In this document: positions 22,122 through 28,905 of the stretch, piece by piece
Position numbering within the stretch: the stretch's first letter is position 1
Layout: the number at the start of each line of letters is the position of its first letter
Origin: Rickettsiales bacterium
GTDB lineage: Bacteria; Pseudomonadota; Alphaproteobacteria; Rickettsiales; UBA3002
Length of the DNA: 38,048 nucleotides
Direction of reading: 5' to 3'
NCBI GenBank assembly: GCA_028281385.1
Contig: JANQJY010000099.1
Coordinates: 1 to 38,048, forward strand
Notes under the pieces: model-generated
The model's input: only the letters and a program-made list of their open reading frames with translations
What the model was told of the DNA's origin: nothing
Database searches by the model: none
Program-made: the position numbers and the translations under genes

Positions 22122-22520
22122 TTACAAGCGTATAACAGGAGGTGCGCGCGTCAGCGGCGTCGCATAATTGCGTGAGTAAACGCTCTCGCTATCCGCCGTG
22201 ACAAATGAGGGTAACGGGTAGGCATAAGACGCCCATTCGATCACACTATCCTGAGGAAGCACCCCCGTCTGCGAGGCAAACAACCCACACATCACGCAGT
22301 CGGATTGCTGGATCACTTCCCCTTCTTCGGGCGTTTCGTCTGACAGGGTAATATATTTGAATCCGAGCGAACTGCAAATCAGAAGCGGCTGTAATGCCTG
22401 ATGATTCTGCGTCAGGCTGACCAGGGACACATAGGCGGGAAACAGGCATTTGACCAGCAGCAGCAGCGCCAGCAGCGCTGACAGACACCGCCCTTCGCCA
22501 TATCGGATTGCATGCCACAT
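22122..22520 (-). CDS. DUF2946-like small membrane-anchored protein
   Basis: A 132-residue protein with an N-terminal membrane helix or signal (about 12-30, CLSALLALLLLVKCLFPAYV), a pattern of LLICSSLGFKYITL in the middle, a cysteine pair in SDCVMCGLFA, and the ending LTRAPPVIRL. This layout (hydrophobic start, C-x2-C, terminal R-x-PP) is that of DUF2946, often found next to copper genes. ATG 22520 has AGGAG 5 bases upstream; the open frame runs 28 codons further up, but those residues look like unselected sequence. It is probably co-transcribed with the barrel gene. Confidence 0.65.
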   Translation of the reverse strand: MWHAIRYGEGRCLSALLALLLLVKCLFPAYVSLVSLTQNHQALQPLLICSSLGFKYITLSDETPEEGEVIQQSDCVMCGLFASQTGVLPQDSVIEWASYAYPLPSFVTADSESVYSRNYATPLTRAPPVIRL

Positions 22521-22589
22521 CATATCTCCTGCTTGTAACTTCCGGCGCGGTCGATGGCAAGCCTTACGAACACATCGCCAACAGAAGGC

Positions 22590-22617
22590 TTGCACATGGC
22601 GCAAAGCCAGCTATAGT
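22590..22617 (+). promoter_or_regulatory. Putative sigma-70-type promoter of parE
   Basis: TTGCAC at 22590-22595, a 16-bp spacer and TATAGT at 22612-22617. Transcription would start near 22624, giving a leader of about 20 bases before ATG 22645 that includes CAGGA. Confidence 0.5.
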
Positions 22618-22644
22618 GCGGCGCTCAGGACACAGTGGTATGGT

Positions 22645-24642
22645 ATGAACGATTTATTTTCAGATAAAAACCGGCAACGCAAGACGGCTGATACTTCCCA
22701 TTATTCCGCCAAGGATATCGAAGTACTGGAAGGGCTCGAACCGGTGCGCCGCCGTCCCGGCATGTATATCGGCGGCAGCGATGAGATGGCCATGCATCAT
22801 CTTGTCAACGAAGTGTTCGACAATGCGATGGACGAGGCCGTCGCCGGTCATGCCACCCGCATTGAAATCGAGATGGACGAGGATAACGTCATCACCATCC
22901 GTGATAACGGTCGCGGCATTCCAATCGATCCGCACCCCAAATATAAAAAGAAGTCGGCGCTGGAAGTCATCATGACCACCTTGCACGCTGGTGGCAAATT
23001 TACCGACAAAGCCTATGAAACCGCCGGAGGATTGCATGGCGTTGGGATCTCGGTGGTGAATGCCTTGTCGGATTATCTGCGTGTCGAAGTCATCCGCGAT
23101 CAAACGCTTTACACCCAAGAATATGAGCGCGGCCACCCGACCACCAAACTGAAAAAGGAAGGCCGTATCAAAAACCGCCGCGGCACCACCATTATTTTCC
23201 GGCCTGATGAAGAAATTTTCGGTAGCAAGGCACAATTCCGGCCGGAGAAACTCTACCGGCTGATGCGCTCCAAAGCCTATCTGTTCCGCGGTGTCGAAAT
23301 CCGCTGGAGCTGTGAAGAAACATTGCTTGCAGGCACAAAAGGCGTGCCAGCAAAAGAGACCATCCATTATCCCGAAGGCTTAAAAGACTTTCTCAAGCTC
23401 GAACTGGCCAATCGGCGGACGATTACCGAACACCCTTTCTGCGGCGAAGCGGAACTGGCCGATGGCAAGGGCCGTGTCGAATGGGCCATGGCCTGGCCAT
23501 TCGATCAGGACGGCATGGCCAACAGCTATTGCAATACCATCCCGACACCCGAAGGCGGCACCCATGAAACCGGTCTGCGCGCGGCATTGAACAAAGGGCT
23601 TAAAGCCTTCGGCGAGATGACCAATAACAAAAAGGTCGCGCAGATTACTGCCGATGATATTATGGGCGGGGCGATTATCATCCTGTCGGTCTTTATCAAA
23701 AATCCGCAATTTCAAGGCCAAACCAAAGATAAACTCGTCTCGAACGAAGCCAACAAGCTGGTGGAAAATGCCATTCGCGATCATTTCGATCACTGGCTCA
23801 GCGGCGATCCGGACAATGCGCAAACCCTGCTGACGCATATCATCCTGCGCGTCGAGGAACGCCTGAAACGCCGCCAGGAAAAAGCCGTGGCGCGCAAGGC
23901 CGCCACGCAGCGCCTGCGCCTGCCCGGCAAGCTCGCCGATTGTACCAGGCAGAATGCCAAAGGCACGGAACTGTTTCTGGTCGAGGGCGATTCTGCCGGC
24001 GGTTCCGCCAAACAAGCGCGCGACCGCGAGATCCAGGCGATCCTGCCGTTGCGCGGCAAAATTCTCAATGTCGCCAGCGCTACTGCCGATAAAATCCGCG
24101 CTAATCAGGAAATCGCTGATATCATTCTGGCACTCGGTTGCGGTTCCGGCAGTCTGTATGACGAAAAGGCACTGCGCTATGAAAAGATCATCATCATGTG
24201 CGATGCCGATGTCGATGGCGCACATATCGCTTCGCTGCTGATGACGTTCTTCTATCAGGAAACCCCGCAACTGATTGCGCGCGGCCATCTCTATCTGGCG
24301 CAACCGCCGCTGTTCCGCATTACCCAGGCTAATAAAAGCTACTACGCCCAAACCGAAGCAGAGAAAGACAAGCTCGTCGCCAAACTGGAAAAAGGACGCG
24401 GCAAGGTCGATGTCGGACGCTTCAAGGGACTCGGCGAAATGACCCCGGCCCAGCTGAAAGAAACCACCATGAACCCGAAAAACCGTATCCTGCTGCGCGC
24501 GATGATTCCGATGGACGAGACGGAAGCGACCGATGAGCGCGTGCATCAACTGATGGGTAAAAAACCCGAATTGCGCTTCAAATTCATCAAGGAACAGACC
24601 GAACTTTACGGCGACCAGGTCACCGAACGACTCGATGTATAA
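22645..24642 (+). CDS. parE: DNA topoisomerase IV subunit B
   Basis: ParE is the ATPase half of topoisomerase IV, which unlinks daughter chromosomes. From ATG 22645 it has 665 residues, the length of alphaproteobacterial ParE and shorter than GyrB (about 800). The GHKL ATPase motifs are EVFDNAMDEAVAGHA, RDNGRGIPIDPHPK and GGLHGVGISVVNALS. The TOPRIM motifs are LFLVEGDSAGGSAKQARDR and IIMCDADVDGAHI. It ends with the usual GLGEMTPAQLKETTMNP and FIKEQTELYGDQV blocks. The frame extends 65 codons upstream over the putative promoter, so that part is not coding. parC is not in the window. Confidence 0.95.
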   Translation: MNDLFSDKNRQRKTADTSHYSAKDIEVLEGLEPVRRRPGMYIGGSDEMAMHHLVNEVFDNAMDEAVAGHATRIEIEMDEDNVITIRDNGRGIPIDPHPKYKKKSALEVIMTTLHAGGKFTDKAYETAGGLHGVGISVVNALSDYLRVEVIRDQTLYTQEYERGHPTTKLKKEGRIKNRRGTTIIFRPDEEIFGSKAQFRPEKLYRLMRSKAYLFRGVEIRWSCEETLLAGTKGVPAKETIHYPEGLKDFLKLELANRRTITEHPFCGEAELADGKGRVEWAMAWPFDQDGMANSYCNTIPTPEGGTHETGLRAALNKGLKAFGEMTNNKKVAQITADDIMGGAIIILSVFIKNPQFQGQTKDKLVSNEANKLVENAIRDHFDHWLSGDPDNAQTLLTHIILRVEERLKRRQEKAVARKAATQRLRLPGKLADCTRQNAKGTELFLVEGDSAGGSAKQARDREIQAILPLRGKILNVASATADKIRANQEIADIILALGCGSGSLYDEKALRYEKIIIMCDADVDGAHIASLLMTFFYQETPQLIARGHLYLAQPPLFRITQANKSYYAQTEAEKDKLVAKLEKGRGKVDVGRFKGLGEMTPAQLKETTMNPKNRILLRAMIPMDETEATDERVHQLMGKKPELRFKFIKEQTELYGDQVTERLDV

Positions 24643-24674
24643 ATATTGATTATTCTTACAGACAAAAAACCTAT

Positions 24675-24746
24675 TTACGCGGCGGCGACAAAGATAATGC
24701 TCAAAATCACCGCTACAGTGCCCATCATAATCTTCATGCTGTTCAT
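24675..24746 (-). CDS. Predicted 23-residue small membrane protein
   Basis: The peptide is MNSMKIMMG followed by a hydrophobic stretch ending IIFVAAA: one probable membrane helix with a short positive N-terminus. ATG 24746 has AAGGAG at 24753-24758 with 6-base spacing. A TTGACA/TATGGT promoter lies just upstream (24770-24797). An in-frame ATG at 24752 touches the Shine-Dalgarno and is a less likely start. I do not recognise a family. Strong expression signals on such a short frame are the main evidence that it is real. It lies in the 206-base gap between parE and the acidic protein gene. Confidence 0.6.
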   Translation of the reverse strand: MNSMKIMMGTVAVILSIIFVAAA

Positions 24747-24769
24747 ACCCATCTCCTTACGACGGCGCG

Positions 24770-24797
24770 ACCATAGAGACAAGACAGGTTTTGTCAA
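24770..24797 (-). promoter_or_regulatory. Strong sigma-70-type promoter of the small membrane protein
   Basis: On the minus strand, TTGACA (24792-24797), a 16-bp spacer and TATGGT (24770-24775). This is the best consensus match I found in the window. Transcription would begin near 24763, giving a leader of about 16 bases that contains AAGGAG. Confidence 0.65.
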
Positions 24798-24848
24798 GAA
24801 AATGTAATAGCTTATTCAGCATTATAATAAGAGCGATTCTAAAGAAAA

Positions 24849-25460
24849 TCAGACATTCTCATTCAGCAACCCATCCACCTCTTCCGGGGTCAGCGGACGC
24901 TCTCCTCCCTCCGGCGATGGCTGAGATGGGTCTTCAGCCGCCTGCACTCCCTGATCGGGAAGAACCGCTGTATCCGATTCATGAGGCACTTGTCCGCTTA
25001 AATCACCGATCGACAGGGGTTCAAACTTTGTTTCGACACGTTCTTCTCCACCTGATTTGACCGTATCAACGAAAAGAACCACTTTTTCACGCGGTTGCGG
25101 CAATCTGGTATCGAATGATATGGTGTCCTCTGTCGATTCGATGGATTCCTCCTCCAGAACCAACCTATTCAACGCCCTGTCCTTGATGATTTTATAAGGT
25201 TCATCAACACCACTTTTTTCAGCTGCCTCATGCGCCGAATCCGCTTCCACGACGATACTTTCTTTTGCGGTTTCATACACGCGGTACATGGTTTTATCTG
25301 AATAAACAAAACGCCGCTTGTTTACAATCAACGGAGACAAATGATGATCAATCACCTCTTGCGATATGACCTCTTCACCCATTTCCTCTTCCATGGGATC
25401 AGTCATATCCGCTATCGCTTGAGCATTCTGCTCATCTGTTTCGTTTAATACGCTTTCCAC
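24849..25460 (-). CDS. Acidic hypothetical protein with FliM-like C-terminal motif
   Basis: A 203-residue acidic protein that I do not recognise. The first 40 residues are Glu/Asp-rich. A compact part at about 48-100 (RFVYSDKTMYRVYE, IVVEADSAHEAAEKSGVDEPYKI) looks like a small alpha-beta domain. The rest is Pro/Glu-rich and probably disordered, ending LTPEEVDGLLNENV. That tail resembles the LSQEEIDALL motif at the FliM N-terminus that binds CheY; this is only a likeness. There are no membrane helices and no Cys. The start is GTG 25460 with GGTGG upstream, overlapping the PAS gene by 16 bases, so the two are probably translated together. Confidence 0.7.
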   Translation of the reverse strand: MESVLNETDEQNAQAIADMTDPMEEEMGEEVISQEVIDHHLSPLIVNKRRFVYSDKTMYRVYETAKESIVVEADSAHEAAEKSGVDEPYKIIKDRALNRLVLEEESIESTEDTISFDTRLPQPREKVVLFVDTVKSGGEERVETKFEPLSIGDLSGQVPHESDTAVLPDQGVQAAEDPSQPSPEGGERPLTPEEVDGLLNENV

Positions 25461-25921
25461 TTCATTCCACCGATAATATAGGCAACCTCAGAACTCTTAC
25501 TATCTTTCGATAAGGGCAGCATGCACGAGCGGAATCGTATTTCCTGATTTTTGGTATTGGTAAATCCGGCTTCTTCAATAGCCGGTTGTTTGGTTTCCAA
25601 TATCTCTTCGAATTTATGAACCAGCGACATATTGGTCGGATAGATCAGCTTCTCGCATATCTCCTTATTTTGCAGGTCATCACCGTAGGCTTCCACCAGA
25701 TCCTGCCCGAGATAAGTGTATTTATAGCCTGCCTCCGTAGCTTGTATATCTTCCACCCGTACCAGAAAACAGGAATCCCAGATATCTTCGATCGCCTCGG
25801 GATCAATCTCTCCTTCACTCGGAAAAGGCCGCTCACCCTTTAATTCCTCCCAGTAGAATAACAACCGCTCATTAATACGTTTATTCTGAACTTTCAATAA
25901 GTTGCTCATTTTTTCCAGCAT
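25445..25921 (-). CDS. PAS_5-type PAS domain protein
   Basis: A single-domain protein of about 158 residues. The pattern LFYWEELKGERPFPSEGEIDPEAIEDIWDSCFLVRVED, then YKYTYLGQDLVEAYGDDLQNK, then a final strand pair (SEVAYIIGGMKW) fits PAS_5 (PF07310), common in alphaproteobacteria; Caulobacter MopJ is of this type. Such proteins sense or relay signals through protein contacts. No output domain is fused, so the overlapping acidic protein may be its partner. ATG 25921 is chosen over GTG 25924; ATG 25909 with GGA upstream is also possible. It starts about 50 bases after folC, so it could be read from the folate operon. Confidence 0.75.
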   Translation of the reverse strand: MLEKMSNLLKVQNKRINERLLFYWEELKGERPFPSEGEIDPEAIEDIWDSCFLVRVEDIQATEAGYKYTYLGQDLVEAYGDDLQNKEICEKLIYPTNMSLVHKFEEILETKQPAIEEAGFTNTKNQEIRFRSCMLPLSKDSKSSEVAYIIGGMKWKAY

Positions 25922-25969
25922 CACTTTGTCCCTACGCTGCTACACTATAGCATGAATCCATAGCGGCGT

Positions 25970-27193
25970 TTAGCGGTTTTTTGCAAGCACATGCCCCGCC
26001 AGATATAGTGAACCGCAGATTAAGGCGTAGGGATACGATATGGTTGAAAGCGCTTCAGAAAGGGACATTGCGGAGCGAACCGGTAGTTCTAATTGTTTTG
26101 CTGCATCGCACAATTGCTCCCTGGACATGCCGGAAGGCTCCTGTGGAATATCGATACAGACAATCTCCGCAGCCATGCCCTGAAAGGCCGAAAGGAAGGC
26201 GGCGGGATCTTTCTGTGCGGTCATCCCTACAATCAGCGTGATGGGTTCATAGTGATGTGCTCTTATCCACCCCGCCAACGCCTGACCGGCCTGTTCGTTA
26301 TGCCCGCCATCCAGCCAGATCTCCGTCTCATTTTCTGCCAGATCGACCAGCAGACCCGCTGTCAGCTTCTGCAAACGCCCCGGCCAGTGAGCCTGAGCGA
26401 CTCCTTCCATGATGTGCGCCTCTTCAACTGAAAACGCTCTACAGTGCGACAAAACCGTTGCCGCCAGCGCCGCATTATCGCGCTGATGCACACCGGCCAG
26501 CACAGGCGACAGTTTATTCCATTGATCGTCTACCAGGATCAATGGTGCAGATTTCTCGCGCGCGACCTGCTCTATGACCTCCAGCGCCTCCGGCAACTGC
26601 CTGCCGACAAAGACAGGACAATGCGGTTTGATGATCCCGGCTTTTTCAAAGGCGATCTTTGCCAGCGTATTCCCCAGAAATGCCTGATGGTCCATCGCCA
26701 CCGGCGTAATCACCGTCGCCAGCGGATCGGCAATGACATTCGTCGCATCGAACCGCCCGCCCATCCCGACTTCCAGCAGCGCCACATCGGCCGGTGTCTT
26801 AGCGAATAGCTGAAATGCCGCCACCGTCAGCGCTTCGAAAAACGTGAGCGGATACTCCTCCGTCAACGCTTTGACCTGCATCAATGTTTTATAGAGTGTA
26901 TCCGCTTCGACCTCCTGTCCGGCAATGACAAACCGTTCCGTCACACTGACCAGATGCGGAGAGCTATAAACATGCACGCTATATCCCGCCGCCTCAAACA
27001 TGGCGCGCATAAAGGCGATGGTCGAGCCTTTGCCGTTGGTACCGGCGACATGGATTACCGGCGGCAGCGACAGATGCGGGTTGCCAACTTCTGCCAGATA
27101 CTGCTCTATCCGTCCCAGAGAAAGATCGATCTCCTTCAACTCCGGATGCATCAGCGAATCCAGCAATGCCTGCATCTGTTCGCTATCGCCCAT
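25970..27193 (-). CDS. folC: Dihydrofolate synthase / folylpolyglutamate synthase
   Basis: FolC adds glutamate to dihydropteroate and lengthens the glutamate tail of folates. The 407-residue protein has the P-loop HVAGTNGKGSTIAFMRAMFE (about 48-67), SPHLVSVTERF, LEVGMGGRFDATNVI (about 143-157), TPVAMDHQAFLG and the C-terminal WLDGGHNEQAGQAL. The length is normal. Its start overlaps the folP stop by 11 bases. Confidence 0.96.
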   Translation of the reverse strand: MGDSEQMQALLDSLMHPELKEIDLSLGRIEQYLAEVGNPHLSLPPVIHVAGTNGKGSTIAFMRAMFEAAGYSVHVYSSPHLVSVTERFVIAGQEVEADTLYKTLMQVKALTEEYPLTFFEALTVAAFQLFAKTPADVALLEVGMGGRFDATNVIADPLATVITPVAMDHQAFLGNTLAKIAFEKAGIIKPHCPVFVGRQLPEALEVIEQVAREKSAPLILVDDQWNKLSPVLAGVHQRDNAALAATVLSHCRAFSVEEAHIMEGVAQAHWPGRLQKLTAGLLVDLAENETEIWLDGGHNEQAGQALAGWIRAHHYEPITLIVGMTAQKDPAAFLSAFQGMAAEIVCIDIPQEPSGMSREQLCDAAKQLELPVRSAMSLSEALSTISYPYALICGSLYLAGHVLAKNR

Positions 27194-27974
27194 CGATCAC
27201 CTCACGCAGTCTGGCGTGCGCCGCTACATCATGCACGCGCAAATAATCGACACCCCGCTGCATCAGCATGGCGGAAAAGGCCAGCGTCAGCTCATCGCGC
27301 TGCGCGGCAGGCGCATCGGTAAACAGCCCCAGAAAGGATTTACGCGAATGACCGACATACAGAGGAACCCCCCCCGGCAACAGCAGGTCACAGGCATTCA
27401 GCAGCGTCAGTGATTGCACCGCCGTTTTGCCGAATCCGATGCCGAGATCAAGCACCAGACGCGAGCGGTCAATTCCCACTCTGTCACACTTACTCAGCAG
27501 CGCTTCGGCCCATGATTGAATCACCGCCATCGGGTCTTCTTCTTCCGCCAGCACCACTGTCTTATCCGCCGGAATGCTCAGCGAATGCATGAATATTACT
27601 TGGCAGTCCGCTGCCCGCACGACCTCCAGCATCGCCTCATCCCGCCCGCCGCCGACATCGTTGATCATATCCACCCCGAGTGTGATCGCCTGCTCTGCCG
27701 TTTGCGGGTGATAGCTGTCCACGCTCACTCCTACTCCCTGAGCGTGACACAAAGCTATGGCCGGTTCCAACACCGGCAGCAGCCGTTTCCATTCCTCTTC
27801 CGCGCTCATCGCAACTGCGCCGGGGCGTGTCGACTCCGCTCCCAGGTCAACGATATCCGCACCATCCGCTATCAACTGTCGCACGTAAGCCAGTACGGCT
27901 TCCTTATCCTGCAACGCTCCACCGTCGGAAAAGGAATCCGGCGTGACATTGACGATCCCCACCAGTTTAGTCAT
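27183..27974 (-). CDS. folP: Dihydropteroate synthase
   Basis: FolP joins p-aminobenzoate to the pterin; it is the sulfonamide target. From ATG 27974 the protein has 263 residues beginning MTKLVGIVNVTPDSFSDGG, the pterin/phosphate loop. It continues with VDLGAESTRPGA, DMINDVGGG, LVLDLGIGFGKT and VGHSRKSFLG. The frame opens 16 codons earlier inside folK, but the chosen ATG overlaps the folK stop as ATGA, which suggests coupling. Confidence 0.96.
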   Translation of the reverse strand: MTKLVGIVNVTPDSFSDGGALQDKEAVLAYVRQLIADGADIVDLGAESTRPGAVAMSAEEEWKRLLPVLEPAIALCHAQGVGVSVDSYHPQTAEQAITLGVDMINDVGGGRDEAMLEVVRAADCQVIFMHSLSIPADKTVVLAEEEDPMAVIQSWAEALLSKCDRVGIDRSRLVLDLGIGFGKTAVQSLTLLNACDLLLPGGVPLYVGHSRKSFLGLFTDAPAAQRDELTLAFSAMLMQRGVDYLRVHDVAAHARLREVIDGR

Positions 27975-28492
27975 GGCATAGGCCCCAGCTTTTCGAGATA
28001 CCGGCTGTCGAGCGTCTGGCACAGGGAGCGCAGCGAGCGGCCACCCAGCATGTCATGTGCGCTGGGATAACACCAGTCCGGCACGACCTCCTGCATCGGG
28101 ATCAGAACAAACGCCCGCTCATGCATATGGGGATGCGGGATAATCAGTTCCGGTGTTTCGATAATCCGGTCTTCATAGGCCAGAATATCCAGATCGATCT
28201 CGCGCGGTGCCCATATGCCGCGCTTCTCCTTGCCAAGCCGTTGTTCAATCTCCTGAAGCACAGCCAGCAATGGCTGAGGTTGAAGTTCTGTATCGATCTG
28301 CACCACCGCATTGACAAACGGAACATTCCAGGCCGGATCGGCTCCCTCTTTCAGCAATGCCGGAGACTCATACAGCGAAGAGGACGCCAGAAGCCGGATA
28401 TCCTCCCGCGCCGATAACACCTCTGCTGCCTGGGAAATATGACGCTCACGCTCGCCGAGATTGCTCCCCAATCCTATATAGGCAATACTCAT
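27971..28492 (-). CDS. folK: 2-amino-4-hydroxy-6-hydroxymethyldihydropteridine pyrophosphokinase
   Basis: FolK transfers pyrophosphate from ATP to the pterin before the FolP step. From ATG 28492 it has 173 residues: AYIGLGSNLGERERHI at the start, SSLYESPAL, FVNAVVQI, and the active-site block RGIWAPREIDLDILAYED followed by IIPHPHMHERAFVLIP. The upstream part of the frame overlaps folB and is not family-like. The chosen start overlaps the folB stop by ATGA. Confidence 0.96.
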   Translation of the reverse strand: MSIAYIGLGSNLGERERHISQAAEVLSAREDIRLLASSSLYESPALLKEGADPAWNVPFVNAVVQIDTELQPQPLLAVLQEIEQRLGKEKRGIWAPREIDLDILAYEDRIIETPELIIPHPHMHERAFVLIPMQEVVPDWCYPSAHDMLGGRSLRSLCQTLDSRYLEKLGPMP

Positions 28493-28905
28493 GAACGAAT
28501 GATCGCACCTTCCGGCAGGTCGCTGTAGGAAAATGCCACTCCCGAAATATCGTAAGGCACCGGCGGTGAACATTTATTGATGCTCAGGGAGACGGCAATG
28601 CCGTCCGCGTCGCTACCGCATCGGTCCTGCAGCGCTTCACGAATCACAGCATGCAGCTGCTGGCACAGATATTCGATCAGGCGAAACTCCCTGCCTTTTA
28701 CATAGTCGATCAGTCGGCGGCAGATATCGTCGTAACACACAAACACTCCCTTATCCGTATCACAGACCTCAAGACGCTCGGCAAAATAAAAACAGATACT
28801 GACTTCCACCGGCTGTTCGGCCAGCCGTTCATGCTTGTCCACTCCCAGCAGCAGCTGTAATCTGAGCCGGTCAACACTCAGCGAATAAGGATAATAATGC
28901 GACAC
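28489..28905 (-). CDS. folB: Dihydroneopterin aldolase
   Basis: FolB makes 6-hydroxymethyl-dihydropterin, the substrate of FolK. The 138-residue protein shows LQLLLGVDKHERLAEQPVEV with the conserved Glu, VCYDDICRRLIDYVKGREFRLIEYLCQQL in the middle, and SINKCSPP with the conserved active-site Lys. The C-terminus is a little longer than usual. The start is GTG 28905 with GGAAG 6 bases upstream. It is first in the folB-folK-folP-folC run and is divergent from pabC. Confidence 0.85.
   Translation of the reverse strand: MSHYYPYSLSVDRLRLQLLLGVDKHERLAEQPVEVSICFYFAERLEVCDTDKGVFVCYDDICRRLIDYVKGREFRLIEYLCQQLHAVIREALQDRCGSDADGIAVSLSINKCSPPVPYDISGVAFSYSDLPEGAIIRS

What the first reader, a model, noticed from the sequence alone, without database searches (positions are those of the whole stretch)
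24675..24797. 23-residue membrane protein with near-consensus promoter
A very short frame carries the strongest expression signals I found: TTGACA, 16 bp, TATGGT, then a short leader, AAGGAG and ATG at 6 bases. The product is a single hydrophobic helix with a short positive N-terminus. Standard gene finders skip such frames. It may be a small regulator of a membrane complex, a toxin, or a stress peptide. No antitoxin RNA is evident.
Basis: seen in the sequence. Interest (0 to 1): 0.58.

Follow-up and report, generated by a model that had tools for sequence, protein, structure and literature searches.

The report
Probable leftover of lost phosphate-binding gene
A tiny 23-residue membrane-helix frame sits where related bacteria carry a phosphate-binding protein gene that this genome appears to have lost, so it is most likely the leftover export signal of that gene rather than a new small protein.

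Summary
The elements are in the sequence as described: minus strand, TTGACA-16-TATGGT, AAGGAG, ATG, 23 codons, TAA. The promoter score (10/12) is at chance level for the window. A ribosome-binding site followed by a frame this hydrophobic is not, and its synonymous codons look like those of genes. The peptide has no detectable relative: 0 of 36 relatives and 0 of 342 other genomes of the order, with a search that is weak for 23 residues. The neighbourhood gives the explanation. In 7 of the 8 same-family relatives where both genes were found, pstS (periplasmic phosphate-binding protein, with an export signal) follows directly after the gene upstream of the frame, on the same strand; in several it ends against parE, as the frame does. 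This genome has no PstS, PstC/PstA or PstB match over the cut-offs used. The frame reads like a signal peptide (short positive start, hydrophobic core, Ala-Ala-Ala end) that stops where the mature protein would begin. Best reading: a PstS signal peptide left by deletion, inert or still expressed. Sequence similarity cannot prove this: the peptide is no closer to PstS signals than to other signals. Toxin or conserved-regulator readings have no support. Ordinary, with one interesting residual.

The parts
24675..24746 (-). 23-codon frame MNSMKIMMGTVAVILSIIFVAAA plus TAA; signal-peptide-like; proposed remnant of pstS (ATG at 24752 gives a 25-aa form)
   Evidence: position
24753..24758 (-). ribosome-binding site AAGGAG, 6 bases before ATG 24746
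   Evidence: read; scan
24770..24797 (-). promoter-like TTGACA-16-TATGGT, 10 of 12; chance-level by score in the window
24849..25460 (-). p203: upstream 203-aa protein without a Pfam match; in relatives its homologue is followed directly by pstS
25445..25924 (-). PAS_5 (PF07310) gene, the synteny anchor used to find relatives
22450..24642 (+). parE-type topoisomerase subunit B, convergent with the frame; its stop lies 32 bases from the frame's stop

Best explanation
The frame is what is left of the 5' end of a pstS gene: its start signals and signal peptide, cut at or near the signal-peptidase site by a deletion that removed the mature phosphate-binding domain, in a lineage that lost the whole Pst phosphate importer. 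If it is still transcribed, it would make a Sec-type hydrophobic peptide inserted in the inner membrane with no mature part to release. Shown here: the frame and its signals; pstS in this place and orientation in relatives; no match over the cut-offs used to PstS, PstC/PstA or PstB in this genome. Inferred: that the frame descends from pstS, that a deletion made it, and that it has no important function.
For: Position: in 7 of the 8 same-family relatives with matches to both p203 and PstS (G001, G004, G005, G006, G008, G010, G012), pstS lies directly after p203 on the same strand; in the eighth, G009, they are on different contigs. In G001, G004, G008, G010 and locus L115 it fills the p203-parE slot. 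Identity: Pfam PBP_like_2 at E 2e-30 or better for the 5 slot proteins of this kind scanned. Loss: in the own genome (95.7% complete) 0 matches to PF12849, only a sub-cut-off 18.7-bit match to TIGR02138, 0 to TIGR00972 at 1e-90. A tree of FolP, folC-like, PAS_5 and ParE_C places G001 (pstS in the slot) with G002 (no pstS), and G000 next to both (support 94/94 and 92/92), so the loss looks specific to the G000 line. Architecture: Lys near the start, hydrophobic core, Ala-Ala-Ala end. A DNA alignment of pstS starts puts the TAA where several relatives have the first mature codon CGC/CGT. Codon choice in the frame resembles that of genes (5.9 bits).
Against: Peptide similarity to PstS signal peptides is not above background: mean score 13.75 for 8 PstS signals, against 18.0, 17.5, 13.5 and 10.5 for the only four non-PstS signals in a control list of 11; the test has almost no power. 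No trace of the mature domain or of the pstS C-terminus was seen in the 32 bases between the two stops (read by eye). No congeneric genome was available, so the deletion cannot be dated; the tip branch is long (0.45), and an old unselected remnant should have decayed. G002, also without pstS, shows no such remnant. The p203-to-start gap is longer here (102 bases) than in G001 (50).
Confidence: 0.6

Rival explanations
1. A real, independent small membrane protein (de novo or lineage-specific) that is expressed and does something at the membrane, unrelated to pstS.
For: Ribosome-binding site plus high hydropathy beyond chance; gene-like codon choice; a promoter-like site in front.
Against: No homologue among 36 relatives or 342 other genomes of the order; no Pfam or NCBIfam match for the 23-aa frame; it would be a coincidence that it sits in the slot of a lost secreted protein and ends in a signal-peptidase-like Ala-Ala-Ala.
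Confidence: 0.18
2. A pstS-derived signal peptide that has been kept and put to use as a small membrane protein (exaptation).
For: All evidence for the remnant, plus the intact start, frame and codon bias on a long branch. [quoted passage not shown]
Against: No evidence of selection; the frame is seen in one genome only.
Confidence: 0.12
3. A type I toxin of the Ibs/TisB/DinQ sort (names recalled, DinQ also in the listing).
For: Size and hydrophobicity.
Against: No opposite-strand promoter-like site close to the frame (the plus-strand sites in 23500-26000 lie at 23654 and 25321), no Rfam match, no paralogue in the own genome, no match in phages better than E 0.9 and none in plasmids.
Confidence: 0.03
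4. A chance frame in an intergenic stretch, never coding.
For: Short; promoter score at chance level; RNA fold of the stretch not unusual (z -0.88).
Against: Frequency of such frames in resamplings (0.1 per window at hydropathy 2.0 or more, none at 2.6 or more) and third-position G+C.
Confidence: 0.07

Closest known systems
PstS signal peptide (PBP_like_2, PF12849 family)
   Same: Place, strand, order of genes, positive start, hydrophobic core, small residues at the end
   Different: No mature domain follows; primary sequence not specifically similar to relatives' PstS signals
Small membrane proteins with signal-sequence character (MgrB, MntS, KdpF, CydX as listed in PMC10903887, passages seen)
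   Same: Size class, one hydrophobic helix, signal-like pattern
   Different: Those are established proteins with known roles; this one has no detected homologue and lies beside no recognisable partner complex
TimP (38 aa, Salmonella; PMC7667032, passages seen)
   Same: Signal-sequence-like membrane peptide
   Different: TimP is found in other enterobacteria, is longer, and is paired with the sRNA TimR; no such RNA is evident here

Membership tests
PstS (PF12849) | Periplasmic phosphate-binding domain | tested here: not met
   No domain follows the frame; 0 matches in the own genome
Remnant of pstS | Same place and strand as intact pstS in relatives | tested here: met
   7 of 8 same-family relatives with both genes found; slot filled in G001, G004, G008, G010, L115
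Remnant of pstS | Residual sequence homology to pstS | tested here: inconclusive
   Scores equal to those of other signal peptides, four real controls only; loose DNA alignment agrees at the cleavage site
Remnant of pstS | Intact gene absent from this genome, with its pathway | tested here: met
   PstS, PstC/PstA and PstB absent at the cut-offs used; genome 95.7% complete
Sec signal peptide | Positive n-region, hydrophobic h-region, small residues at -3 and -1 | tested here: met
   Read from the sequence; no SignalP-type program was available
Conserved small membrane protein | Frame conserved in related species | tested here: not met
   0 of 36 relatives, 0 of 342 other genomes of the order; the search has low power for 23 aa
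Conserved small membrane protein | Expression | not testable with these tools
   No RNA-seq or Ribo-seq held
Type I toxin-antitoxin | Antisense RNA | tested here: inconclusive
   No opposite-strand promoter-like site near the frame and no Rfam hit; a consensus scan cannot exclude one

The most novel reading that the evidence does not exclude
A signal peptide freed by deletion of its secreted protein has kept its promoter, ribosome-binding site and frame and now lives on as a stand-alone small membrane protein: the birth of such a protein caught in one lineage, with ancestral-type loci in its sisters.
Probability: 0.12. Interest if true: 0.55.

Novelty: new member of a known kind. Interest (0 to 1): 0.22.

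Why it matters
As a remnant it is ordinary, but it is a useful caution: a hydrophobic frame with good start signals is also what a signal peptide left by gene loss looks like, so small-membrane-protein screens should look at what relatives carry in the same place. If it proved to be expressed and constrained, it would be a direct case for the suggestion (PMC10903887, passages) that some small membrane proteins come from signal sequences.

Tried and rejected
Peptide searches in the own genome, in 36 relatives and in the order (343 genomes with the own one) found only itself; these searches are weak for 23 residues. DNA search with 301 bases of the slot gave, at E below 0.003, matches at query 219-301, the parE end, in six relatives plus a 25-base one in G007; the rest were weak scattered matches. 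A first scan of parE-downstream short frames used nine loci in the wrong orientation; it was redone (24 loci, one of them the own). There, the only opposite-strand hydrophobic frames with a ribosome-binding site were the frame itself and a 33-aa frame in L035 (G013), score 20, not pursued. Type I toxin, phage and plasmid origin: two weak phage hits at E 0.9 in unannotated Listeria phage records, nothing in plasmids. Pfam gave one weak match for the 40-aa form only (DUF2116, E 0.075, below its cut-off), taken as chance; NCBIfam none. The plus-strand 53-aa frame (24646-24807, TTG start) was set aside: no ribosome-binding site and codon choice unlike genes (-4.6 bits). Signal-peptide control set was poor: of 11 'controls', 7 were judged by me from coordinates to be PstS itself. 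ParE tree alone left G000, G001 and G002 unresolved. G003, which also lacks pstS, shows no short hydrophobic frame behind p203 in the stretch held. One literature search gave nothing; others gave only background.

Full report
Observation. Promoter-like sites of 10/12 number three in the window, against 4.3 (sd 2.2) in 30 resamplings, so the promoter is not remarkable by score. The combination of a strong ribosome-binding site with a very hydrophobic short frame is rare (0.1 per resampled window at hydropathy 2.0 or more, none at 2.6 or more in 30). Thirteen of the 19 non-ATG codons end in G or C although the slot is 38% G+C (p = 0.0024), and codon choice favours the window's genes by 5.9 bits. 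The frame therefore looks coding, now or in the recent past.

Who has it. The window lies in a 2.15-Mb, 120-contig draft genome, 95.7% complete. The relatives in genome contigs are MAGs titled Alphaproteobacteria, Rickettsiales or Pseudomonadota. No other genome of its genus was among the relatives searched (searches list none). The peptide matched only itself in 37 genomes and in 343 genomes of the order. It has no match in Pfam, NCBIfam or plasmids, and only E 0.9 matches in phages for the 40-aa form.

What stands in its place elsewhere. On the minus strand the frame follows a PAS_5 gene and a 203-aa gene, p203, and faces parE. ParE_C and p203 were used to find the same place in relatives. 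Behind p203, on the same strand, G001, G004, G005, G008 and G010 carry a protein of 337-362 aa (the calls give the longest frame) with an N-terminal signal peptide and the PBP_like_2 phosphate-binding domain, read here as PstS. In G006 and G012 PstS also lies directly behind p203. In total that is 7 of the 8 same-family relatives with matches to both proteins; in the eighth, G009, the two are on different contigs. Of the remaining five same-family relatives, G011 and G013 have PstS but no p203 match, and G002, G003 and G007 have p203 but no PstS match. In G005 a glycosyltransferase gene lies between pstS and parE. Among additional MAG loci, L115 has p203-pstS-parE, L120 has p203-pstS up to the contig's end, and L117 and L123 have pstS behind PAS_5. 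In G002 the p203 and parE stops are 2 bases apart with nothing between.

Loss of the Pst system. The own genome has no PF12849 match, one sub-cut-off 18.7-bit match to PstC (TIGR02138, cut-off 196) and no PstB match at 1e-90. G002, G003 and G007 likewise have no PstS, no PstC over the cut-off and no PstB at 1e-90 (weak sub-cut-off permease matches in G003 and G007; G002 and G007 are only 70% and 80% complete). All ten other same-family relatives have PstS, and PstC over the cut-off; of the same-family genomes included, the seven with PstS also have PstB. PhoU is not found in G000, G002 or G003, but is present in G007 and absent in G006, so it does not follow the pattern exactly. PHO4 (Pit-type) transporters are not found over the cut-off in any of 19 genomes. 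A tree of four proteins groups G001 (pstS present) with G002 (absent), with G000 next to them (94/94 and 92/92, below the starred level), which suggests separate losses in G000 and G002; ParE alone did not resolve this.

Reading. The simplest account is that the frame is the start of the lost pstS: start signals and signal peptide, ending Ala-Ala-Ala at the point where relatives' mature protein begins with Arg, followed at once by a stop. Between the two stops lie 32 bases at 22% G+C. Whether the peptide is still made cannot be told from sequence.

Limits. Peptide similarity to PstS signal peptides is no better than to the four unrelated signal peptides available; this comparison has little power, since signal peptides diverge quickly. 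No remnant of the mature domain was seen. The deletion cannot be dated for lack of a congener. An independent small membrane protein (0.18), an exapted signal peptide (0.12), a chance frame (0.07) and a toxin (0.03) remain possible.

Known background. [quoted passage not shown] PMC7667032 (passages) describes the signal-bearing toxic peptide TimP with its sRNA. PMC7549839 (start of abstract in the listing) deals with membrane insertion of the 27-aa YohP. What I saw of them does not concern this locus.

Noticed in passing
whole genome of the window (G000): Neither a Pst importer (PstS, PstC/PstA, PstB) nor a PHO4/Pit transporter was found over the cut-offs in this genome; PHO4 was over its cut-off in 0 of 19 genomes. 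How it takes up phosphate is open.
   Followed up: partly
24849-25460 minus: p203 has no Pfam match but homologues in 21 of 36 relatives at E 0.01; its C-terminal tail (L-[ST]-P-E-E-V-[DE]-[AG]-L-L) is alike in G000, G001 and G002.
   Followed up: partly
24646-24807 plus: A 53-aa TTG frame on the opposite strand, also hydrophobic, without a ribosome-binding site and with codon choice unlike genes.
   Followed up: yes
25970-28573 minus: Cluster of HPPK, pterin-binding (FolP-type) and Mur-ligase-fold (FolC-type) genes next to the PAS_5 gene; the order FolP, FolC-type, PAS_5 is kept in several relatives.
   Followed up: no
5130 minus: Second short hydrophobic frame with a ribosome-binding site (31 aa, hydropathy 2.11), inside the span of longer frames.
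   Followed up: no
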